The notes below the pieces were generated by a model, which was not told the origin of the DNA, ran no database searches, and saw only the letters and a list, made by a program, of their open reading frames with translations. From Tetrahymena thermophila SB210 (taxonomy: Eukaryota; Ciliophora; Oligohymenophorea; Hymenostomatida; Tetrahymenidae): a DNA stretch of 64,000 nucleotides. Position 1 is the first letter of the stretch. Each line of letters opens with the position of its first letter. This document shows positions 25,468 to 60,606 of this stretch, piece by piece. The DNA lies in NCBI RefSeq assembly GCF_000189635.1, contig NW_002476254.1, positions 186,001 through 250,000 of the forward strand, given 5' to 3'. Position numbers and translations under genes: made by a program.

Positions 25468-28400
25468 ATGAAGTAGAATACGATAGTCTAAATTGATAAA
25501 AGTCCTAATGACGATAGATAATATTTAGGTTTTGAACTTCAAAATGGTATTAAAGTTATGGTAATAAGTGATAGTCATGCAGAAAAATCAGCTGCTTCAC
25601 TTGATGTTTAAGTTGGTTAATTACAAGATCCAGAAGAATATTAAGGATTAGCACATTTTTGTGAACACATGCTTTTTATGGGCACAGCAAAATATCCTTT
25701 ATAAAACGAATATAGCTAATATTTAAGCTAAAATGGAGGAAGTGACAACGCCTATACTGATATATTGAATACCAATTACTACTTTGATGTTAAATCAGAT
25801 GCATTTGAAGAAGCTTTAGATAGATTTAGCTAGTTTTTTATCAGTCCTCTATTCGATGAGACTTGTGTAGAAAAAGAGATTAATGCAATTGAAAATGAAC
25901 ACTAAATGAATGTTAGTGAAGATTCCAGTCGTTTATGGGGAATATTTAAAGCTCTAGCAAAGGAAGGAACAAAATTTCGTTAATATGGAGGAGGATGCTT
26001 ACAAACTCTTCAAAAAGAAAATATTAGAGAAGAACTGCTTAAATTTTATGAAAAATACTATAGCGCTCATAAAATGAATTTAGTAATATATGGTCAGGAA
26101 TCAATAGAAGTACTAAAAAATCTGGCAATAAAATATTTTTCTACAATACAAAACAAAGAAAAAGAATAAATTAGGTAATACTCTATCCATAAATGCACTT
26201 ACTTCTTAATTTTACAACATTTTAATTTATAATTCTTTGATTGAAGTCATAAATTTATTTATTTTTTACTTGATTATTTTAATTAAAGAGTTTTTAAGGC
26301 AATATCTATCTATTTTGTAGATAAATTTTTAGATTTTTTTGTATTTCTACTAGCATTTTGAATATAAAAAACAAAACATTTTTTTAAATCCAACAAAATT
26401 ATTAAACATTTTATATTTTACAAAATGATTTAAATTAGTGATGAACAGATGAAAGAAATGGAGTTAGAGAAAATTCACCCATTCCCTAGAGAGTAGCTTT
26501 GCAAATTAGTTAAAATCATTCCCATAAAAGATGAAGATATTATTGAGTTCTGTTGGGTAGTTGAGGATTAATAATAGTACTGTAATATAAAGCCAGATGA
26601 TTATTTAACGCATATTTTTGGCCACGAAGGAAAAAATTCTTTGCTTTCTTTACTTCTTGATGAAGGATTAGCAGTAGAATTGACTTCTTATTCAGAAAAT
26701 TGCATGAATTTATTTACTATAATTGGCTTTAATATCACATTAACTCAAAGAGGATTCTTTGAATATAAAAGGGTCTGTCATGCTGTTTTTAATTATATAT
26801 AAGTCCTTAAAAAAGAAGTTGCCAACAAAGAAGCATATGAAGAGGTAAAAGATATTGAGGCTATAAATTTTCGCTTTTTAGAGAGAATAGCAATAAGTGA
26901 ATATGTAACTAAAATTGCAGATGGACTTCATTGGATCCCTATGACCAAAATCTTAAAAATGAGATATGATTTCTAAAAGTACGATGAAATTATAATATAA
27001 AAGCTAATAGATTCTCTAACTTTAGATAATATCATAATTTATTTAAGCTCAAAGAGTTTTGATTCACAGTTTTCTAAATCCTTTAACACCTCTCAATAAG
27101 ATTTAGACACTGTCATTGATTCTAGCCAGGTGCTAACAAAAAAAGCTTAAGAGTTAATAGAAACTCACTGCCATAATCATTCAATAACACATCCACATGT
27201 AATTAATTTATTTATTTATTTGATCTAACTAAGCTTGGGTAAAATTTTCATCAATCTAAATTAAAAAATTCAATTTATATAAATTCTTCATTAATTTGAC
27301 AGTTGCTTCTCTCACTACCTTACTTATTTTTCAATATTCTTATAAATTATTGATATTAGCATTAGCTATCAATAAACTATTCAAAATTAACTCTTTAAAC
27401 CCTTGTTGAATTATTAATTTATTTAATAGTAATTATTCTTTTTATTTTTAATAATTAGGGTTCAGCTGCTGCTTAAAAAGTTAAAAAAGATAAAGAATTA
27501 ACTTAAGAAGACTAAGCTTCTAGTTATGATACAGATCAAAATTAATTGGATTCTCATGGAGGAGAATCTCCAAAACTTAAAAGCCCATAAATATCAGCAA
27601 GAAAATATAGTAAGTCTGTTGCTAAAAAATCTTATACAATTGAAGAAGAGTTTGAAGATTTTGACGATGAAAATCATATTTATAGTATGCTAAACAGAAA
27701 ATTTAGCTATTTATCATAAAAATCTGAAACAAATGATGGAGATGAGGAATACTAAGATAATCGTAGCGATGAAAATTTTAATTATGCTAATGCAAAATAG
27801 AATAACAGCAAGAGTGACGATGATTCATTCATAACTGAAAAATATTTAGGAGCTAGATATCTTGTAAGTGAAATTCCTGAAGATATTAAATCTTCTTATA
27901 ATACAGAATATAAGCCTCTTTATAGCAAAAAAAAACTTGGTTTACCTGTTAAAAATTTATTCATTCCTAAAAATTTTGATATACTTCCTAAGACAGATGA
28001 TACAAGTAGTGCCAGTAAGTACCCAATAAAGATTTTTGAAAGTGAAATGAGCGAACTTTATTATAAATAAGACGATACGTTCTTTATCTGCAAAACTTAT
28101 TGTGACTTATTTATCTTTACGAATGATTGCAATCAATCTAAAACAGCTAAATCATTTGTATTGCAAGAAATTTGGTTAATACTTTTTGAAAACTATGTTA
28201 ATGAAACTAAATATTTAGCTCAAATGGCTAATATAGATTTAAAATTTGAGTAGCACTACACTTCTTTTAAAGTAAGAATAAAAGGATATAGTGATAAAAT
28301 CGGTGTCTTGTTTGAAGAGTTTTTAAAGCTCTTTAAGTCATTTAATCCAGCTGATGAAGGTTAAAGATTATTTTCAACTTTTTATGAAAGATAAATGTCT

Positions 28401-30887: not shown

Positions 30888-33800
30888 ATGGGAAATTGTG
30901 TGTAAACAAGTTAGCACAATTAGTTGCAGCAGGAAGTAAAATAATTCCTCCTAGAAAAAGGATTCACTATATCAGGATAGATAGTAGCAAAAATGAAGGA
31001 TATAAATAGGGTTATAATAGCAACAAAAGATTCTAGATAAGTGGCTTTCAAAGTAAGACATTTTCAGAGTAAACTATAATTAAAAGAGTATCAAGACCAA
31101 GCAAATATTCTTTAAAGAGTTGTTCATCCAAATGTAGTCCAATTCGAAGAACATTTTAATTCTAGCCATGTCTTTTTTATGTAAATGGAATACTGCCCAA
31201 GTAAGTTACTTAATAATTTTCTCCTATTTGATAGAAATTCTAATTTTTTTTTACATTTCATCACTATTGATAAATAGTACTTACATTCAATATGAAACTC
31301 CTTAAGACTACTTATGATTTCATTTTTTTAAAATAAAGATAATCTAAGATAACTTTTGAAAGAAAAGAGTCTCAGCTAGTAGGAATAGTTTCATTATGCT
31401 ATGTAAGTTATTAGAGGTGTTCAAGCTATACACAGTGTAAATCACTCTCATAAGGAATTAAAAACACAAAATATATTAGTAAATTAGCAAGGAAATTTGG
31501 TAATAGGTAGAATATTTATTTTCTATTAGTGTTAAAAAAGCAATTTTGATAAAAATAATAGGTGATTTTGGATTGGATAGAGAAGATGATATCTTTTATC
31601 AAAAATGCTAATCTTAAGATGATTTAGTTGTAAATTTTAAAGCTTTAATATTTTTACTCATATACTCTTTTTTATTTATTTATTATTATTAATCAGAATT
31701 CATAAAGATGGTATGTTGCACCAGAAATTTAGATGGGATAGCCAGGAATATTGCAAAATATTAATTAACCAGTAATTAATTAAAATATTCTTCCTTTTAT
31801 TTAAACTTTAGAATTAATTCACATAAATCTTAACTCATTATTAAAATTTTGATTTTTTTTCTTTACCTAAAATTAAAAAATTAGGCTGATATCTGGTCAT
31901 TAGGAATCATTATTTTAGAAATCTTTGGCTTGAAATATGTTAGCAACTTTTAGAGCATAGAATAGCTATAATTAACACTTGATTTACTCTATAACTAAGA
32001 CTTTAGTTTTATAAATTTTATTGATAAATTCTTAACTGATATAATAAAATAACTACTAAATTCTGAGCCTTCAAAAAGACCTATCATAGATGATGTTAAA
32101 AAAATGATTCAAAAAGAAATTGATGTAAGATTTGTTGTGAGCAGGTCTTAGACAGATTCTTCAGGTGACTTCCCAACAGATTCTTCACTTTATAAGCATA
32201 AAATGTGAATATTTTGAGAAAATAAAATTACTTTGATATTTAATATAATTTTATTATGATAAAGATTTGAAGTAAATCCATAAGAAGTACAATTTTTTTT
32301 AAACGGACAAAGAAAAGGAGATGACTCTATAAAGAGATTACACATTTCATTTGAGTAATTGAATTCTAAATTAATTAAATTAAAGAATTTAATATCATTT
32401 ATATTTATATTAGGTAGCATCATTAAGCTGAAATATACTAATTAATATAATGTTTGATAAACATGCCATAGGAAATATCAGAACTAAATTTATCCTTTTA
32501 GTAAATAAATAAATTTTATTTTTTGAAATTATTTTAATTTAAAGAAATATTTTTTAATTAAAAAATTTAATCTTAAAAAAAGTTTTATATTAAAATAACA
32601 AAAATAAACATTTATTTAAAAGAGATATTTAAATAGACGCAATTTCAGTTAGAGAATTAATACTACAAACAAAAAGCCTACCTGTAACTCTTTAGAATCT
32701 AACATTTTGGTTTAGGTATGTTTAAAATAATTTGTCATTCTGTTATTGTATATAATTTTTAAATAGAAATGTAACAACAACATGCGACTAATCTGATTTT
32801 TACTAAAACTTGATTACTAAAATACCTGATAAAATTAAATACATAGGCCTATATATAGAGTAATTTAGTTTCAATAAAATATGAAATTAAATTAAATTAA
32901 AAAATAATTTAAAAGGAAACAGTCATTAAATAAAAGAATGCTGAAAGACTTAGCATCTTCCTTAAAATTTCTACCACCGAAAATAAAATCATTAACTTTA
33001 GGATTTTAGTAATAATAAATAAATGCTATAGAATTTGTTTTTAATTATCAATTTTATTAAATAAAATAGCTAAAATATATTCACAAATGATTCATTTAAA
33101 TACTTTAGCTTAATTTTAGATTTACTACCATAAAATTTAAAATCTTTAGAACTTGATATTGAGTAAGTTAATTTTCTTCAAAAATTTAATTTAAATCATT
33201 TAAATATTTATCAATTAATTAAGAAATAATCCTGATATCTCAACTAAAGGATATATGACTATGTTCCAGAATATAGGATCTCTGCCAGTGTAAATAAACA
33301 CTCTTTACCTGAGTTTAAAGTGATTAAATTAATATTTTAATAATTTTGAATTTTTAATAGTCAATTGACTTTCAAAAATTAAAATTTATGTTAAAATTTT
33401 GTATTAAATTTTAATTTTATAAAATAATTTAGAAGTAACAGTTTAAATGAAGAGTCGATTGAAGTGTTATGTTTGTCTTTAAAAAAATTACATAATTAAA
33501 TAAATTAACTGAAAATAGACCTCTCGTAATTTAAATTTAAATTTTTTATAGGAAAATTCAATTAACTTAATTTTAAAGAAAAAGCATCAGTGATAGTATT
33601 TCTTTCACTAGGTTTTGTTTCCATTTACCATAAATTGTTGGATCACATGTAGAAAAGCTATGCTTGTCATTTGAGTAATTTATTTATATTTAATTAAAAG
33701 TTTATCTGAAAATATTTACCACAAAAAATTCAGAAAATGCAATTTAGGAGATGAGGATATAAGTAAATTATGCGACTCTTTACTAAAATCTTAAAACCAC

Positions 33801-34225
33801 CTAATTCAAGTAGAAATTGGATTATAACAAAATTAAATCTCAAATGTTGGCTTTCATAAATTGATTCAATTTATTAATGCAAATAAAAAAGCTAAATTTA
33901 CAGATTTATATCTAGGGTAAATATTATTTCAAACTAATTTTTTTAAATTAATATAAAATTATTTTAAAGTAATAATAAGAAAATAACTGAAAAAGAAGCA
34001 ATATAAGTGTTGTTAAAAATAAAAGATTAAATTCCTCATAATTACACTAGAGTTGGATTTAATTTTGGGTAAAAAAATCTATTTTGATATTTATAAATGA
34101 CTGATTTTTTATATTTTAATAGGGAAAATTATCTTATAAGACAAGGTTTAATTGAGGGAGAAAATTACTAGGAACTGGAAAACGAAATAATAAAGATTAA
34201 TAGCATTCTTAATATAATTGCTTGA
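30888..34225 (+). CDS. Protein kinase fused to leucine-rich repeats, one repeat per exon
   Basis: Seventeen exons give 720 residues. Residues 1-8 (MGNCVQTS) fit an N-myristoylation signal. The kinase domain (about 25-300) has VAFK55, a catalytic loop HKELKTQN (142-149; HKE in place of HRD), DFG at 162-164, and an activation segment ending RWYVAPE (187-193), then DIWSLG. The glycine loop is degenerate. From 315 on, exons at 32265-32354, 32414-32500, 32623-32715, 32767-32859, 32916-33008, 33070-33162, 33224-33319, 33433-33525 and 33579-33674 are 87-96 nt long, all bounded by phase-2 introns, and each ends in a repeat such as KSLTLGF, KSLELDIE, NTLYLSL or EKLCLSFE. Exon 33734-33916 carries about two ribonuclease-inhibitor-like repeats; 33970-34068 and 34123-34225 finish the protein. 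Kinase exons: 30888-31200, 31339-31506, 31562-31629, 31697-31771, 31885-32204. Confidence 0.85.
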
Positions 34226-41049: not shown

Positions 41050-41570
41050 TATTAACTCGATCGATATATTTAAAATTTCAATTATTGTGTATGAGTTAAA
41101 ATATGTTTGTATTTGTGTATAATATTCAAAATATTCTTTGATTTTTACAATATTTAGTTTAAATTTTATCATATACTTAATCTTATTATAAGCATTTATG
41201 CTTAAGATTTCTATGAAAATAAATATTTTCAATTTAAGTAAGAAGTATACATTGATCAACAAATGTATTGTCTTAAATAATAAGAACTTTCTGTTCAAAA
41301 AAATTTCTTATCAGATTATATGCATCTCTGTCATATATTTAAAAATTTATAAGCTTTACTTTTTTTATTTTTGCAATTATTTGGTTGAGATAGTATTATA
41401 TCATTCTTGATATTTTTGCATGTATCTATCACTAATCTATATCAAATTTGGTGATAAAAAAAAAAATATTCTAAGCAATCGTAATTCATTTTAATAAACA
41501 AACTTATTGAAATTCAAAAGCAAAAGAATTAAAAATAATAATTAAATTAGTAATAAAAGAAAAGTAATAA
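41050..41570. other. Intergenic gap
   Basis: A 521-bp AT-rich gap between two plus-strand genes, presumably containing the promoter of the RING-PX gene. Frames on either strand here are low-complexity and not credible. Confidence 0.55.
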
Positions 41571-43184
41571 ATGGGAGATATTTGTTACTCTTAATTTCCT
41601 TTATTGAAGGAAGAGTGGAAAAAGGAAGAGTGTTAGATTGAATTAGATTAAGGGATACCAACTCAATTATTTTATGACTCCTCTGAAGCTAAACAACTAT
41701 CTAAATAATATCAATGCGATATATGCACAGATATTTTATGGGAGCCTGATGAATGCTCTGTTTGTAAAAAGAATTACTGCAGGAAATGTATCAGATCATG
41801 TATTCAAGTATGTGAAAATTGTCCTAATTGTAGTTAGATATTTAAATCAAGCAAAACACATCCAATAGTCTATTCAACATTATGTAGCAGTAGGTTTAAA
41901 TGCCTATTTTCAAAGGACTATGGTTGTAAAGAAATAGTAGAATATGAAAAATTTTTAAAGCATGCAAACAATTGTTTGTATCGTAAATAAAATAGGTTCG
42001 ATATAAAGCAAATAGAAATACAGAATTATAAAATTGTATAAGAAAAATATCAAAAGTAGTATATCAGATATCAAATCCAGATCACTTATTATTGCAATGA
42101 ATCTTATATCATTTCTAAAAGGTACAGTGAATTCGCATAATTGCATTAAGATCTATATTCTGATCAGGAAATTTTGGGTAAGATCATACCCCATTTGCCA
42201 GATAAAATGTTTGACTTTTACAGTCTAGTTGGCTATTCCCCAAGAAATGAATAGGATATAATCTATAGAAAAATATTACTAGAATCTTATCTGAATCTCC
42301 TCAATTAAAATCCACATTTTAGTAAAAGAGATTGTTTTAAATAGTTTCTTTCTAAAGAAGGTCAAAGCAATGAAGAGTTGTAGATAGGGAGTGAGTCAAA
42401 AATAAATAAATTTATTGAAAATATTAAAGATGTAATTAAAAAAAATAAAGATACTACACTGTAGCTTTTAGAATAGTAAATGAATACCTTAACTATAAGA
42501 GATATCAATTTAGATTCTAAAAATTTAGAAGAAAATGAATAGGAGTGTAAATAGTTTGAAAAAAGTGTTTAAGAAATATTTTAATTGCTAGCTAAAACTA
42601 TTTGCTAATGTAATGATGCAATTAGCTAAATTGCTGAGAAGAGTAATAAAAGTGATGATTAAGAGAAAGATGCAATCTAAAATAAAAAAAGGTCTATGAT
42701 GGACACTTCTGAATAGATTTAAGCAGACTTTAATGACATTATATAGGAAGAAGTAAAAGTAATATAGGAGTATAATACTAAAGTGTATAAGTTAATTATG
42801 AAAATAGGGCTATGTCTTTGCAGGCTTAAAGGATTTTAGGATGCCTTGGTTAAATTAAAAGAATATATATAAAAATATATTTCAGTTTTAAAGTAAAAAT
42901 TTTAGTGCTCTGAAGAAAAATAAAAGGAATTACTAGATAACTAAATAAATGAATTAAAGTAAATAATTGAAATATCTTAAAAAAACTTAGATGAAGACTC
43001 CAACATCCTAAAATAAGATATTATATCTAGTATTCCTGACCTAGTTAGTGAGTACCATTCACTAAATTAAAGCTATTTCGTACCTTCAATATAAGTATAT
43101 GAAGATATCAACAATAAAAATCAACCAAATAACGATAAGCTATTTTACTAAATATAAAACCTTATCTTTAACAACAATAATTGA
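41571..43184 (+). CDS. RING + TRAF-type zinc finger + PX domain protein
   Basis: A single exon of 537 residues. The RING-like finger spans about 49-85 (CDIC, CSVC, CRKC, CPNC pairs; Cys replaces the usual His). A TRAF-type finger follows (CSSRFKCLF to HANNC, about 98-130). Residues about 140-260 match a phosphoinositide-binding PX domain: YQIQITYYCNESYIISKRY, with the conserved RYSEF at 184-188, then LGKIIPHLPDK and LLESYLNLLNQNPHF. The last 260 residues are helical and Glu/Lys/Gln-rich and could be a BAR-like coiled coil as in sorting nexins. Such a protein would be a ubiquitin ligase or adaptor on endosomal membranes (inference). Continuous frame and three domains in order make the structure firm. 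Confidence 0.85.
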
Positions 43185-44227: not shown

Positions 44228-45846
44228 ATGTTGAAAATAAATAACTTAATATATTTATCTTTGGTAGTACTTCCATTGCTTGCTTATGGGCAGAATTCTG
44301 AGAGTAATTAAAATGAGAAGATATTCGAAATTTAACTCCACCATGATAGTAAAATAATTACTTATTTCGATCGTTATTTTAAAGAGAGTTTGCATCATTA
44401 ACCAAAATGGCGAATTGATATATTTAAATGAGCAGTTAGTATATTTTTGTAATTAGGCTTAAACAAAATATCAAAATAGTTTAAAAGATAATAATAATTT
44501 AATTAATCTATCTTCATTTTTGTGTATTAATTGACTGAAAATATTATCTCATTAAAGATGAAAGAAATGTTTGAATTTTATTTTTATTTTTTAAAAAAGG
44601 TATTGAAAATTTATTTTATGTTCATACTAGTATGGGTAAGGAGGTATAAGAATCAAATTTTAAGTTCTTAGTTGATACTGGCTCAAAAAAAACCTGGGTT
44701 TAAAATGAAAAATGTAAAAAATGCGTTGAAAGAAATAATAAAAAAATAACCAGAAAATGTGAGGAAGACATTTGCAAAAATAAAGATATACTTGATGAAA
44801 TTAAATATGGAACTGGTTAAGTCACTTATTATGACACCTATGATTATTTAGTACTTGATGATTTATAAAATACTGGGACTCTTACTCTTAAAGTAGATAT
44901 GGGTCATGTTGTAGATATTAGTGATGATTTGTTAGAAATGACATATAATGGATTAATAGGATTAGAATATGAATAATATGAAAATTATATAAATCCCTTT
45001 GTTTATCAATTTAAGTAATAAAATAAAATTGACAATGATTAAGTTTTCTCAATAAATTTTCGTAAACATGATGCTTCTTTAATTCTTGGAGGAATTAAAT
45101 AAAGTCTAATTCCATAAAATAAAACTGATATTCAATATATATCAATAGATACAGACTTAAAAAAATGGTAAATTTAACTTTAAGATTTTAAAGTAGGAAA
45201 TTATTCGATTCTAAATGAAAATCAAAGATTAAATTCAAAAATTCCAGCAATTCTTGAAGAAATAGAATAAAAGAATATTATTGAGAAAGAAGATTAGTTT
45301 AAGGCAAATATTGACTCTGGTACTAACTATATAGTTCTTGATCAGAATTTAAATGAGAAAGTTAGGGATGTCTTAATAAACAATTATAATTTTTAGTGCA
45401 AGCTTGAATGTGGAATTTAATCGAAATTTTGCCAACTAAAATGTAAAAATCCAGATGGAAGAGTAGATAATTTCCCACCTTTGAGCTTTACATTTATTGA
45501 CCAGAATAATTAAGAGTTAGTTATTTCTATACCTCCTAAATAATATGTTGAAGAGAAAATAGTTAAGAATCACCAAAATTTAATGTTAATTAATTTTTTA
45601 ACTTAAAATAATACTAAAGAAGGCGATAAAAATAATATTCCTAATGAACTCATTTTAGGGTACCCATTCCTTTAAAACTAATACGTTATATTTGATATAA
45701 ATCACAACTAAATCGGGTTTGTTTAATTAGACCCTTTAGATTATCAAATATGCTAAACCAAAGTAATTTTATATATCTTAATTGGCTTCATGATTATGTC
45801 TATTGGATATTCAGCAGCCAAAAGTATCATCAAAAAGATATTTTGA
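44228..45846 (+). CDS. Membrane-anchored pepsin-family aspartic protease
   Basis: Two exons (44228-44387, 44600-45846) give 468 residues. An N-terminal signal peptide (NLIYLSLVVLPLLAYG) is followed by a short propeptide-like part. Both catalytic signatures are present: DTGS at 79-82 (FKFLVDTGSKKTW) and DSGT at 292-295 (ANIDSGTNYIVLD). The flap region contains YGTGQVTYYD, and several Cys pairs suggest an extracytosolic fold. A C-terminal transmembrane helix (VILYILIGFMIMSIGYSAA) ends in a short basic tail, so the enzyme is probably type I, lumenal in the secretory or digestive pathway. The splice donor is the weak point: an in-frame TGA at 44429 forces an earlier donor; 44388 (GTTTGC) keeps frame, but 44347 (GTAAAA) is possible. 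Confidence 0.88.
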
Positions 45847-54515: not shown

Positions 54516-57500
54516 TCAGCATTAGTTGTTCTGTGTATTAATTAAATTGCTATCTGAAAAAGATATTAGAAATTACTCATTTACAAGAGCATTTTCTGAA
54601 TGTTTTGAATCTTAAATATTTTCTGTTGAGTGTTCGTTTGAATTTTATTTTGGCTGAGCAGATTCCTCTATGGTTTAACTTTGCTTATTAAATTAATTTT
54701 GGTAGTTATTTAGAGTTTAAGTAATTTGTTATATTTATTACTTATTATCCTCTTCTTTGCTTAGATCTAATAAAACTTTTTGCATAGCTTTTATAATCAT
54801 ATCAAAATTATCCTTATTATAAAGTATTTATTAAATTGTTTATACTTCTTCTAGCTATTTTTTGTTAAATAATTTAGAGTTTTTTCCACTTAAGCTTATG
54901 ATATAATCAAATACTAAAACATAAGAATGGAGATATGGTATTATGCTACTAAAACTATCATTATTTGCTTCTAATTCAATTCTTTGAATAAATTATTTTA
55001 GTAACCATGAGTCTGAAAAAAATTTGATAAGTAGTTGCTATTAGAATTCAAATAAATTGTCTAATAATTCATGTCGAATAGAACCCTAAAAAATAACTAA
55101 TTAATCTGATTAAATGTTGCTCATATTACAAAAAGATCTTCCTAAATTAAAGTAGTTAGTTTAGTTTTAGTTATTGATTTTTAGACAAAATTTATCTGTT
55201 TCTTTATTGATTGAAAGCACATTTTCTAAATATTTCTCTAAATTTTACTCATCAACCTAAATGTATCTTCTAACATAATTTTTTAATTCACTAAAGTAAT
55301 TAATTTCTTCTTTGTAGAAAAGTAATATCTATTTAATTGTATTTTCGACAGCAAAATCAATTGTGGTTTGTTCACTTTCATTTAAACTTAAAATTGTTTT
55401 GGATTAATTGAATTATTTAATGATATTTAAAATAGGAGTTTAATCAAACAGACACTAATTCGAAAATATTTAAAGGTAATAGCTTTCTGTAAATCCAAAT
55501 TCTGTCTCTGATTCTTCAATGTATTTTGGTTTTTCAGCAAACTTCTAAATTAGAGGATATAATAGATTTTATTCTTAGTCTTCCACTAATAAATAGAGTA
55601 TTTAATATGTTAACATAAAGTGATCATAGAGCTTATTTTCTGAAGCCATCGTTTTATTAATTGAATTAAGAATGACTTAGCAGTCTTCATTTTGTTAAAA
55701 AATAACTTCTAAGTACCATCTCCAATAGGTATTAGGATATTCAAAGCACTAAAGTATATTATTTTTCATAAGAGCAAGCATAATTTAAATTAAGTTATTC
55801 AATTAACTTTTTTCCAAATAGGAGAATGAATCTGAAAGAGCTTATTTAATTGTTTCTAACGAAAAATCTAATGAATTGGATTTTAACAAAATTATATAAA
55901 TAATTATTGGGAAAAGACAAACAGAAGTATGGAGTAACTCTTCATCCTTTTCTTCTTTAAAGTTATTACTTATTTCGTATATCCTATATATTTATTATTC
56001 GAACTAAAAGCAGATTGAGTGAATTAATAAATCAATTTATTTTTTTGTATTCTTTTATAATGCATTTGTAACAAGCAATTTAAAGTAATTTAACAGAATT
56101 TTTTATATCTCAAAAAATCCAAAGATTAGAGGATATTTCTACAAAAATTAACTAGAATAATCTTCATTTGTATCTAAATCTTTAAGAGTTTATCTATCAA
56201 AAATCAATGAATGCAGTTTTACTAATTCAACTGAGTATTCTATGACTACTTAAAAGTTGTTTTAAAAAATGGAAACAATTTAAACTACTTAAGATAATAT
56301 CACTGAAACTGTGTATATCAATCGATATTCAGAAGCCTTTATAAAGCTAATATTTTTTATTATATGATAAACATACTTAAGAGATTGCATATAAGCATTA
56401 GTATTATTTTAAATAATCTTTTATGAAATACTTAGCGTCTACAAACCTTAAAGACACAATTAAAATATTTAAGCCTAATGTATGTGTTTATTATTTCCCT
56501 CTTATTTGAGATACAATTAAAATTTTATCAGCTTAAGTAGCTTTTCAGTAGTAAACTCATTAAATTATTAACTTGTAACTACTAAATCACTCAATAAACT
56601 AAAAATTAGATCATCATTTTTTTCATTAACATAAGAGTATAACATAACTAAATACTCAAAAATAGATGTTTTTTCATCAATTTCCTTATTTTACAAAAAG
56701 CATAGATTTTAAGTTTTAGAAGTATCTATCTTAATAGCTTTTCCAAGAGGAGAACATAGTAATTCACATACTACTTCAATCAACAAGCTACTCTCTGAAA
56801 CTAACTGTTATATTTTTTCTATAAGAATAGTTAGTAAGTAATTAAAATGGTTTTATTTATTTTTATCAAAATTTCCCTGATGTGATTCATAGATAAAATC
56901 AGATTGCTTGTCTATCAAAAAATAAAATACCTCTTTAAATAAGTCAATAAATTTTTTTTTCATATCTTAATAATCTTAAGTTTATTTTTTCGCTTCTTGC
57001 AATTTTAACCCATCATGATTTTTACAAAAGCTTTCTTTAGGAATCCTATTTTGATTTCCACAATCACAATTTAAATTTCCATTATATTATCTTTTTCTAA
57101 ATTAATGATCTTTATGAAAAGTTCTATCGAAGCAATCAGAACAATATTAATTTACTGAAAATATATGATTTGCTTCAATATTAGAATACGAAGTACCATT
57201 ATTATTGCTATTGCATGTGAGGCATTCATAGAAACCTTCAATTTAAATTTTATTTTTGCAATAAGACAAATGTGATGCTTCCTCGCCCTCTTCATTTATT
57301 TTCAAAATATGGCTTCCAATAAAAAAGTCAATTATTTTATTAAATCTTTTGCTCATATTTATAAATTAATTTTAAGGGGAGCAATAGAACCTATTCATGC
57401 ATGTTCTTAAAATATAAATTGGATCATTTATTTCATGCCTCTTCTTTCTATAAAGATAAACCAAAGCACCTATAGATGCAGCAAGACCCCCTACTGTCCA

Positions 57501-57530
57501 AAATAATTTAGTCTTATTAAAATCTCTCAT
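54516..57530 (-). CDS. Membrane-anchored UBR-box (N-recognin-like) protein
   Basis: A single exon, 1,004 residues, no TGA in 3 kb. An N-terminal hydrophobic helix (LFWTVGGLAASIGALVYLY) followed by RKKR is a signal anchor. Residues 91-172 form a UBR-type zinc finger: SYCKNK, FYECLTC, YCSDCFD, FHKDHQF, LNCDCGN and SFCKNHDG, the Cys/His order seen in UBR1-UBR7, which binds destabilising N-terminal residues (type 1 N-degrons). The remaining 830 residues are helical with no RING, HECT or F-box I can see, so the E3 activity, if any, must come from a partner. It starts 526 bp from the divergent pseudokinase-TPR gene. Assignment of the finger is strong; N-degron binding is inference from family. Confidence 0.85.
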
Positions 57531-58056
57531 AGTATTTTATAAAAACTTGTTTTATTAAAAATTATTCATAAATCTTTCTTAATATCTATTTATTATTGAT
57601 AGATTCTAATCTGATTAAATTTCTGATGAAAATATCAAATAAAATATTTTTAATCAAATAGACATTTTTTTTATAAGATTTTACTCAGTTATTAAATTGA
57701 ATTAAATAAAACATAAAAATAATTTCAATAATAAAATTAAAAAGAATAATAATTATATTTACATTTCATTCTTAAAGGATTTTAGTAAACATTTTTGTTG
57801 TGGATAAGTAATTTGAATCTTTCTTTAAATAAAGAAATAATGTCAAAAATTAATATATAAAAAAGACTATTATCACTACCCTTTTATTAAAAATATTAAA
57901 TGAATATTAGATGCTTTAATAACATCAAAAATTATAAATTTTAATTATTATTTATAAAAAATTTGATTAAAAAAGATCTTAAATTCTAATTGAAAAAACT
58001 TTTACAAAATTGAAAGTTTGAATCAAAAACTATTTAAACAAATTATATAAAATTTA
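57531..58056. promoter_or_regulatory. Divergent promoter region
   Basis: 526 bp of AT-rich DNA between the start codons of the UBR-box gene (minus) and the pseudokinase-TPR gene (plus). Both promoters must lie here; no specific element is recognised. Confidence 0.4.
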
Positions 58057-60606
58057 ATGCTGGATAATATTGCTGAGCTACTTATTTAAGAAGGTTTCTA
58101 AGCAAATATAGATTTAAATAGCATTAATTGCTAATTTACAAAACCATATTTGATTAATTAAATCACATTTGATGGAGTTTAATTAAGTGATGGCCAATAG
58201 GTTAAAATATAAATTACAATTTGTGATGAATAATTGTTCGAAAAAAAGAAGAGAATTTATTTTGTAAACTAAACTATAAATAATTTTGAGTTTTGTATAA
58301 AAATCTTGAAGCAAATTCTGATTGATCAAGAAAAAATCTGCATTTTCATATTTGAAAATTATGAAGAAACTTTGGAGGAAGAGCTTTGTGAAATGAAAAA
58401 ATAAAATATTAATTTTAGTGAAAAACAAATAGTTTAAATGTATATGAATATGATTTATTCTCTTATAGAGATGTGTTCGCTTAATATAGTCCATGGAGAA
58501 ATTAATCCATCAAATATATTTAGAAAATCTAATGGAAAGTACAAGCTTTTAAATGGATAGAATTTAAGTTTTTAAGAATTTCAAGAATTATATAGTGAAG
58601 AAAATTTATATAATATATTTGTAGCACCTGAGGTAAAGTAGAAGTTAAGTTTGATGCAAACAAATGAATTCTAAAAGAGTCATGCAAAGTGGTAATAAGA
58701 TGTATACAGTATGGGGTTGTGTTTTTTAAATATATTACAGGTTGAAATTAATGAGAAAGTAATACAATATATAAAAAATTCTGAATTTTCTGCTATAAGA
58801 TAGAATATTGATCCTTTGTATAAAAGTTTTTGCACCTTTATATTTGATTTTATGCTTTAATATGATGGATATAAACGAGACTTACCTTATAGATTAAGAA
58901 GAAGTTTAATTTATTTCTATTCAGATTTACATATTTCTGTTGAGGAAGAATATTAAAGGATTGAAAATCATATTAATCACTATAATTCTTCAGTTAAAGT
59001 TGATGACTTGTATTTGGCTAGCTAATATTTGGTACTGTCTTAAACTTACTTAGAAAATAGATGTGAAGATCATATTCTTAAATGCATGGATATTCTAAAT
59101 AAATTAAATAAAAATAACACATTTGAAGAGGCATTGGCTTATCTTGAGCTAGGAATAATTAAAGTTAATACACAAAAGTATTCAGATTCTCTAGAAGCTT
59201 ATCAGAAGAGCTTAGAAATACAAAAAAGAATTCTTGGCGATTCACATATTTTAGTATCATACACTCATAATAAGTTAGCATTTGTATATTTTTTCTTACA
59301 AAACTAAGAGATGTCTTTTATTGAAGATGAAATATCTTTAAATTTCAGGTAGATTAATTTTTAGAACAATCATACAGATATTGCTGACTCTCTTAGTTGT
59401 GTTGGATTTAGCTATTTATAAAAAAATGATTTACAAAAAGCTTTGGAATACTCTTAAAAATCTTTCGAAATGAGAAAAGAACTTTTTGCTGAAAATCACC
59501 CAGATATTGCAGGGTCTTTAGAAGAAATAGGAATAGTATTTACTCATATGAAAGATCACATAACTGCTCATACTTATTATGAAAGAGCTCTATAGATAAG
59601 ATAATAGATTTATAGTTCATTTCATAATGAAATAGCAAAGTCTTATGATAGCTTAGCTGTTTCTTTTTCTAAGTTAGGTTAAGAAGAAACATCATTAGAA
59701 TTTGATTTAAAGGCTCTTAATATTAGGTAATAAATATACCCAAAGCTACATCCCAAAGTAGCAAGGTCAATAAATAATATTTCAATATCATATTTAAAGC
59801 TTAGTGATTACACAAAAGCTCTTGAGTATGCTTAGGAGTCTTATGGTATTAGAAAATAAATACTGCCCTATTATTTTCCAGATATCGCTGAATCCCTCTC
59901 CACTCTTGGTTCAATATACTACAGATTAGAAAATTATGAAGAAGCCATAAAATGTTATTAATAGACGATAAAAATATTTAGTTAAATTTACTAAATTCTA
60001 CATGAATATACTGTCGATTCATATCTTAGCTTAAGTCAGTGTTATAAAAAATAAGGAGACATAAAATCTGCTCTGGCTTATGAATTAAAGCTACTTAAGC
60101 TTAGAGAAAAATTATACACAAGATATCATCCAGATGTAGCACTTTCTTGCGATAATGTAGCTATGCTATACTCTTATTTACATGAATATCATTTAGAATA
60201 AAAATATTATTTGGACTCATTTACAATCAGAAAAAGACTTTTAGATACATAAGATGAATTAAAAAATGAAGAATATTTGAATTCTATTAAAAATATAGCC
60301 TTATCTTATCTAAATCAAGGTAAATTTGAAAAATCTAGATAATACTTTTCAATAGTATTTGAATCAATCCTACATCAAACATCATGTTCGTAGCATTTTA
60401 TTTCCTTTTTAAACAGTTTAACAAATCTACATTACTAAATGAAAAACTACTCTTAAATCTATACATAATCTAAAACATGTGTTAAATTAGCAAGATAGTG
60501 CTCTCCTTAAAGTGGAATAAATACCAATCTCATAGTTATGAATCATGCTATCATCTCTCGTAAATAATAAAGCTCATCATCTCAATTAATCTAATTTAAT
60601 AGCTGA
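58057..60606 (+). CDS. Pseudokinase domain fused to kinesin-light-chain-type TPRs
   Basis: A single exon, 849 residues. Residues about 60-330 have the order of a kinase domain but with broken catalytic motifs: the catalytic loop is HGEINPSN (146-153) in place of HRDLKPxN, the DFG position reads NGQNL, while VAPE (189-192) and QDVYSMGLCFLNIL (D215) are kept. From about 344 onward there are many 42-residue TPRs of KLC type, for example YLELGIIKVNTQKYSDSLEA, DIAGSLEEIGIVFTHMKDH and AESLSTLGSIYYRLENYEEA. A catalytically dead kinase fold used as a binding module, followed by a cargo- or partner-binding TPR superhelix, is the likely design. The last 60 residues are Ser/Gln/Asn-rich. The start is the first ATG in a continuous frame. 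Confidence 0.83.

What the first reader, a model, noticed from the sequence alone, without database searches (positions are those of the whole stretch)
32265..33674. LRR array built from near-identical 87-96-nt exons, all in phase 2
In the kinase-LRR gene nine consecutive exons measure 90, 87, 93, 93, 93, 93, 96, 93 and 96 nt. Each is flanked by phase-2 introns of 51-122 nt and each encodes one repeat ending in a motif like KSLTLGF or EKLCLSFE. Exons of one phase and one length can be duplicated, lost or skipped without frame change. The array therefore looks like repeat growth by exon duplication, and could allow isoforms with different repeat numbers.
Basis: seen in the sequence. Interest (0 to 1): 0.72.

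Follow-up and report, generated by a model that had tools for sequence, protein, structure and literature searches.

The report
Old LRR exon array on pseudokinase
A ciliate gene joins a probably inactive protein kinase to a string of leucine-rich repeats, most of them one to an exon; this looks like an old, length-shifted relative of the 90-base repeat-exon genes already known from Tetrahymena, and nothing seen here shows that exons are skipped.

Summary
Under the ciliate code with GT-AG introns, 32265-33674 resolves into nine exons of 90, 87, 93, 93, 93, 93, 96, 93 and 96 nt with phase-2 introns of 51-122 nt. The array goes on past the finding: a 183-nt exon with two fused repeats, a 99-nt exon and a last exon. 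All 12 introns from the kinase-array junction on are phase 2; the four kinase introns are phases 1, 1, 0, 0.

Exon duplication is supported but old. Exons 2-8 resemble each other beyond their hydrophobic pattern (0 of 2000 shuffles), at only 4-35% protein identity over the nine exons; the introns show no similarity. [quoted passage not shown] In this genome 60 of 61 exons in 12 control arrays are exactly 90 nt; here 1 of 9 is. Profiles align window exons with 90-nt exons in register, one residue longer beside a proline that exons 2-7 share. So: a diverged, mainly 93-nt variant of a known array, probably fused to a pseudokinase. Isoforms by exon skipping have no support here.

The parts
30888..31200 (+). 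kinase exon 1, start codon, N-terminus MGNC (looks like a myristoylation/palmitoylation signal; recalled rule)
   Evidence: Pfam Pkinase E 3.4e-36 over residues 45-281 of the spliced kinase part
31339..31506 (+). kinase exon 2, holds HKELKTQN in place of HRDLKxxN
31562..31629 (+). kinase exon 3, DFG present
31697..31771 (+). kinase exon 4, APE present
31885..32204 (+). kinase exon 5; donor GTGAAT at 32205; without splicing the frame ends at TGA 32206-32208
32265..32354 (+). array exon 1, 90 nt, phase 2-2, likely N-terminal cap of the LRR domain
32414..32500 (+). array exon 2, 87 nt, phase 2-2, LRR with the shared proline
32623..32715 (+). array exon 3, 93 nt, phase 2-2
32767..32859 (+). array exon 4, 93 nt, phase 2-2
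32916..33008 (+). array exon 5, 93 nt, phase 2-2
33070..33162 (+). array exon 6, 93 nt, phase 2-2
33224..33319 (+). array exon 7, 96 nt, phase 2-2
33433..33525 (+). array exon 8, 93 nt, phase 2-2, His in place of the shared proline
33579..33674 (+). array exon 9, 96 nt, phase 2-2, least like the others
33734..33916 (+). array exon 10, 183 nt, phase 2-2, two repeats fused in one exon (outside the finding)
   Evidence: its first repeat outscores 200 of 200 shuffles against the 90-nt exon model
33970..34068 (+). array exon 11, 99 nt, phase 2-2 (outside the finding)
34123..34225 (+). last exon, stop TGA 34223-34225; predicted protein 720 aa

Best explanation
This is one gene (30888-34225) of a Tetrahymena-like ciliate. 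It encodes a protein of about 720 residues: an N-terminus that could carry lipid anchors (MGNC), a protein kinase fold that is probably catalytically dead, and a C-terminal leucine-rich-repeat solenoid. Exons 2-9 of the array each encode one repeat, exon 10 two, and the intron falls two bases into the codon after the strand motif LxLxF. Inferred: an ancestral repeat exon with phase-2 borders, of the stock that gave the known 90-bp exon arrays, carried one extra codon beside a conserved proline, was duplicated in tandem by unequal crossing over, and then diverged until only border position, phase and the leucine/proline pattern remain. Later changes of length are whole codons; in exons 2 and 7 they lie at the 5' (acceptor) side. 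Inferred function: the solenoid binds a ligand or partner, and the pseudokinase acts as membrane-tethered scaffold or switch.
For: Border model and phases. Exons 2-8 alike beyond hydrophobic pattern. Profile of array exons 2-9 against 20 exons of other arrays (9 of L005, 6 of L080, 4 of L086, 1 of L091): 30 columns end to end, E 1.2e-5, probability 81%, 0 of 100 column permutations reach the score, reversed profile fails. In that set a wrong letter had been added at the end of most comparison rows; repeated without any junction letter and with the 19 exons of three arrays: 27 columns, E 3.2e-5, probability 73%, 0 of 100. Same build in the same genome: 12 arrays, 61 exons, 60 of exactly 90 nt, phase 2 being required by the search. 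LRR fold by sequence: joined array to ribonuclease inhibitor E 8.3e-5; repeat profile to a solved LRR protein E 3.1e-11 and to ribonuclease inhibitor E 0.05. Pseudokinase: alignments to NEK1 and ERK1 put Glu at the catalytic Asp of HRD and Gln at the alpha-C Glu; paralogue L021 has the same two changes by eye, plus EFG for DFG. Published family: PMC6564038.
Against: A model built from 23 mostly young 90-nt exons does not recognise the array as a whole (41 of 200 shuffles score as well); of 12 repeats tested one outscores all 200 of its shuffles, exon 2 loses to 1 and exon 6 to 5, two get no score. Pfam LRR models do not hit at E <= 1; the only family listed is GvpK at E 0.015, below its cut-off. 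Exons 7 and 8 have their nearest match in array L005, not in this gene. The window exons are less alike (mean identity 20%) than those of the three diverged control arrays (31-35%). AlphaFold2 on exon 10 alone gave two helices without strands at mean pLDDT 68.5, uninformative or mildly against. The kinase-array junction uses a GTGAAT donor, and the nearest kinase paralogue is kinase only. A Glu for the catalytic Asp does not prove inactivity. No orthologue and no RNA could be examined.
Confidence: 0.75

Rival explanations
1. The array was an ordinary 90-bp exon array whose exons drifted one by one through codon insertions and losses; there was no separate 93-nt progenitor.
For: Exon 1 is 90 nt; lengths scatter 87-99. 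Exons 7 and 8 are nearest to exons of a 90-nt array. The array is more diverged (mean identity 20%) than the three control arrays that kept 90 nt (31-35%), so it may simply be older.
Against: Five of nine exons are exactly 93, and exons 2-8 keep the proline-to-end spacing that is one residue longer than in the 90-nt exons. Three moderately diverged arrays kept 90 nt in 19 of 19 exons (L005, L080, L086).
Confidence: 0.35
2. Introns were inserted in parallel into a repeat region that was once one exon; exons were never duplicated as intron-exon units.
For: Introns share no similarity. Two repeats of similar LP type lie in one exon of another gene (C148, L082). Exon 10 holds two repeats without an intron.
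Against: Twelve introns in one phase, most at the same place of the repeat, which is also the place used in the other arrays.
Confidence: 0.12
3. The kinase and the LRR array are two genes; the kinase ends at TGA 32206-32208.
For: Paralogue L021 is kinase only and ends at a similar place. The joining donor is GTG, as in 1 of 61 control exons and one other exon of this gene (33224-33319).
Against: Only 56 bases separate that TGA from exon 1; exon 1 has no ATG in frame, and the one ATG seen in the gap runs into a TGA four codons on (by eye); the joined frame is open and in phase.
Confidence: 0.18
4. The array makes isoforms with different repeat numbers by exon skipping, as reported for LRR exons of brown algal ROCO genes and human NLRP3.
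For: All 78 ordered exon pairs tested join in frame without stop. Precedents PMC11378527 and PMC6642158.
Against: Frame compatibility follows from uniform phase and is no evidence of use. Cassette exons are few in T. thermophila (139 of 1,474 events), introns involved average 279 bp, and the authors infer intron definition (PMC3274533); introns here are 51-122 nt.
Confidence: 0.07

Closest known systems
Tetrahymena LRR genes with arrays of exactly 90-bp exons (Xiong et al. 2019, PMC6564038; abstract, sections 9, 10, 11, part 1 of 15, part 2 of 20, and passages seen)
   Same: one LRR per exon, phase-2 introns, borders at the same place of the repeat (compared with arrays of this genome), fusion to kinase domains also reported, introns mostly near 56 nt as in their older groups
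   Different: exons mostly 93 nt, only one of nine exactly 90; one residue more beside a shared proline; one exon with two fused repeats, where the paper reports only one possible case of fused LRR exons in T. thermophila
Brown algal ROCO genes (PMC11378527, passages seen)
   Same: one LRR per exon, phase 2, tandem array, candidate receptors
   Different: 72-bp exons, another LRR consensus, GTPase partner, alternative splicing reported there
Human NLR genes such as NLRP3 (PMC6642158, passages seen)
   Same: exonic modularity of ribonuclease-inhibitor-like LRRs with a fixed border position
   Different: 171-bp exons with two repeats each; no kinase (recalled)
Plant LRR receptor kinases (PMC4654520, two passages seen)
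   Same: LRR plus kinase; phase 2 the commonest intron phase in the B. rapa set
   Different: opposite domain order and membrane-spanning (recalled); a common origin of the fusion was not tested

Membership tests
[quoted passage not shown]
   1 of 9 exons is 90 nt
[quoted passage not shown]
   12 of 12 introns from the kinase junction on
[quoted passage not shown]
   profile comparison E 1.2e-5, and 3.2e-5 when repeated without junction letters; but negative for the array as a whole with the model of mostly young exons
Group III (youngest) of that family | intragenic repeats detectable in DNA, introns near 257 bp | tested here: not met
   three two-copy direct repeats of 22-33 nt, no family spanning the array; introns 51-122 nt
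Group II (older) of that family | at least one 90-bp exon, no repeat masking, short introns | tested here: inconclusive
   only exon 1 is 90 nt; seven of the nine introns that follow exons 1-9 are 51-61 nt; masking by the authors' repeat set not run
Leucine-rich repeat, ribonuclease-inhibitor-like | sequence similarity to solved LRR proteins | tested here: met
Leucine-rich repeat, ribonuclease-inhibitor-like | curated Pfam LRR match | tested here: not met
   no LRR family at E <= 1
Active protein kinase | catalytic Asp of HRD | tested here: not met
   HKE in the window gene, HRE in L021 (by eye)
Active protein kinase | alpha-C Glu | tested here: not met
   Gln by alignment to NEK1 and ERK1
Active protein kinase | VAIK Lys and DFG Asp | tested here: met
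   VAFK and DFG present
Tetrahymena thermophila | species identity | tested here: inconclusive

The most novel reading that the evidence does not exclude
A second, independent clonal line of phase-2 LRR exons with a 93-nt unit and its own LP motif, amplified inside a lipid-anchored pseudokinase gene, which would make the 90-bp rule of Tetrahymena LRR genes one of several amplified units.
Probability: 0.3. Interest if true: 0.45.

Novelty: new variant of a known kind. Interest (0 to 1): 0.3.

Why it matters
The published account treats the exactly 90-bp exon as the hallmark of the family. An old array of the same build that settled on another length, next to less diverged arrays that kept 90 nt, helps to tell what is constrained (phase, donor-side border, leucine pattern) from what is not (exon length). 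It also gives a candidate receptor-like pseudokinase in a genus that includes a genetically tractable species.

Tried and rejected
Alignment query against the own genome: not accepted. Pfam LRR_6 against the genome: 2 matches at the default threshold, of 150 scored from 280 candidates; one (L040) lies in LRR-like coding sequence by eye, L039 was not resolved. Searches for further LP-type exons: one search found only this gene (10 of 10 matches), a made-up consensus, gave 14 matches, 2 of them this gene, several others ordinary LRR repeats by eye or by chain, some not resolved; one search gave five matches, three this gene, one C148 and one C291; one search gave two, this gene and C148; one search gave the same two, but its query was made from both, so that is by construction. 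The first look of that tool is coarse, so rarity is not shown. A first regular expression for control exons had a wrong spacing and found nothing, put right. The comparison rows ended in a wrong added letter in most cases; the comparison was repeated without it with a slightly lower score and the same outcome. An earlier statement of mine that the control arrays were equally diverged was wrong; the odds of the drift rival and of the novel case were moved by 0.05 for that reason. Alternative exon 33361-33453 was rejected because it lacks the strand motif. Intron folding: the 56-nt intron 32860-32915 folds better than all 200 shuffles (z -5.1) and the 122-nt intron moderately (8 of 200 as good); the other seven of nine do not stand out, so no common intron structure. 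Direct repeats: one two-copy family pairs the ends of exons 1 and 9 with their introns over 33 nt at 76%, too little to date anything. AlphaFold2 on exon 10 uninformative; no fold search was made on it. A PDB search with the TPR gene of the window did not name the species. A literature search for Tetrahymena, LRR and pseudokinase gave four papers, seen as a listing only.

Full report
What is there. The window is ciliate DNA read with TAA and TAG as glutamine; it lies in an assembly of 101,022,631 bases in 445 contigs. Splicing by GT-AG gives one gene from ATG 30888 to TGA 34223-34225: five kinase exons, then eleven exons that begin and end in phase 2, then a last exon (start and stop places read). 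The array does not stop at 33674: it continues with a 183-nt exon that holds two repeats and a 99-nt exon. The four introns inside the kinase are in phases 1, 1, 0 and 0, which serves as an internal control; all twelve from there on are in phase 2.

More than chance. An AT-rich genome with a single stop codon makes open AG..GT stretches easily, so this was tested. Under strict splice signals the longest chain in the 64-kb window is the nine exons; the rest of the plus strand gives 4, the minus strand 3, and 20 first-order Markov resamples give 2 to 6. Under loose signals the chain of 11 is less striking, since resamples reach 9. Base composition alternates with the predicted borders: nine exons 0.18-0.31 G+C, ten introns 0.07-0.16. 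The same border set does not reach that contrast at 1433 other placements in the window; within 60 bases the observed place ranks 11 of 121 and the best is one base off.

Are they leucine-rich repeats? Pfam's LRR models do not reach E = 1; the only family listed is GvpK at E 0.015, below its cut-off. The joined array matches ribonuclease inhibitor in the PDB at E 8.3e-5, and a profile of eleven repeats matches a solved LRR protein at E 3.1e-11 and ribonuclease inhibitor at E 0.05. Counted from the exon end, positions 1, 3, 5 and 8 are hydrophobic in exons 2 to 9, as in the 90-nt exons (by eye).

Are they each other's copies? Exons 2 to 8, aligned without gaps from their 3' ends, score higher than 2000 of 2000 shuffles that keep each residue class in place, and than 1998 of 2000 when the proline column is masked. 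Identity is low: 4 to 35 percent in protein (last 23 residues) and 30 to 54 percent in DNA, over all nine exons. The nine introns are no more alike than shuffled ones (41 of 100 shuffle sets have as high a mean). Compared with each other and with the nine exons of array L005, six of eight exons (2 to 9) find their best partner inside the array; exons 7 and 8 find it in L005. Three two-copy direct repeats of 22-33 nt are present, none spanning the array. So duplication is likely, and old.

What family. Xiong and colleagues (PMC6564038; [quoted passage not shown] This genome has such arrays: a consensus query gave 7577 first-look candidates, of which 150 were scored. In 12 loci with a chain of three or more such exons, 60 of 61 exons are exactly 90 nt and one is 87. 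Nineteen of the 61 come from three more diverged arrays (L005, L080, L086; mean identity 31-35 percent), and all 19 are 90 nt; the window array is more diverged still (20 percent). Profile comparison of eight window exons (2 to 9) with 20 exons of such arrays aligns them from first to last codon with E 1.2e-5; 0 of 100 column permutations reach that score. Most of those 20 rows ended in a wrong added letter; without junction letters and with 19 exons the result is E 3.2e-5 over 27 columns, again 0 of 100. The window profile is one residue longer beside the proline that exons 2 to 7 share (six of the nine exons); five of the 20 comparison exons carry a proline one place nearer the end (by eye). 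A model of 23 mostly young exons fails to recognise the array as a whole. My reading is a member of the same stock that moved to a mainly 93-nt unit. Whether that unit was amplified as such or reached by drift is open.

The kinase part. Pfam Pkinase matches at E 3.4e-36. Alignments to NEK1 and ERK1 show HKE for HRD and Gln for the alpha-C Glu, while the VAIK lysine and DFG remain. The nearest kinase paralogue in the genome, L021 (36 percent over residues 1-283), has an uninterrupted kinase frame, no LRR in the frame before its stop, starts MGTC and has HRE, Gln and EFG at these places by eye. Both are therefore probably pseudokinases; that MGxC can be lipidated is recalled knowledge. That kinase and array are one gene is inferred: an open joined frame through a GTG donor, no start codon for a separate LRR gene in the 56-base gap or exon 1, against a kinase-only paralogue.

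How it may work. Shown by sequence: gene anatomy as predicted, phase, similarity. Inferred: a solenoid for ligand or partner binding, attached to a membrane-tethered pseudokinase as scaffold or switch. Isoforms by skipping would keep the frame in all 78 tested pairs, but T. thermophila RNA-seq found cassette exons in 139 of 1,474 events with longer introns (PMC3274533; passages and section 9). Brown algal ROCO genes (72-bp phase-2 LRR exons) and human NLRP3 (171-bp exons) show that such isoforms exist elsewhere (passages).

Literature bounds. A search for Tetrahymena, LRR, 90-bp exon, 93-bp and multiple of three (at least three of five) returned only PMC6564038, with no occurrence of '93-bp'; 'phase 2 introns' with leucine-rich repeat and exon returned three papers. 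Figures are not held, and the 85-95 bp inset of Figure 4 in PMC6564038 may show 93-nt exons.

Noticed in passing
33734-33916: One exon of 183 nt holds two repeats fused in frame; the published survey reports only one possible fusion of two LRR exons in T. thermophila.
   Followed up: partly
L021:1501-2355 (C11:200681-201535): Closest kinase paralogue, single-exon kinase, MGTC start, HRE and EFG in place of HRD and DFG by eye, no LRR.
   Followed up: partly
L082 around 1400-1700 (C148:78006-78269): A gene with a B-box-like zinc finger (by eye) and two LP-type repeats in one exon, the best match outside the window gene (E 0.03 and 0.29).
   Followed up: partly
window 32414-34068 (repeat profile A1): The repeat profile matches the LRR protein of PDB entry 3goz at E 3.1e-11, which I recall as a Legionella effector; not pursued.
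   Followed up: no
32860-32915: A 56-nt intron forms a 13-pair hairpin from its second base, better than all 200 shuffles.
   Followed up: no
33331-33398: AT-rich palindrome inside the 113-nt intron; its RNA fold is not unusual.
   Followed up: no
57994-60606: Another repeat-kinase frame on the + strand: weak kinase match (E 5.9e-6, below Pfam's cut-off) before many TPRs.
   Followed up: no
54516-57653 (-), 44575-45846, 41511-43184, 26362-28050: Other frames of the window match UBR-box zinc finger, eukaryotic aspartyl protease, PX domain and M16 peptidase (10 frames scanned, 5 with a match).
   Followed up: no
L005:94-1856 (C363): A diverged LRR array of nine exons, all 90 nt, hit through similarity to an AT-rich stretch of the window.
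   Followed up: partly
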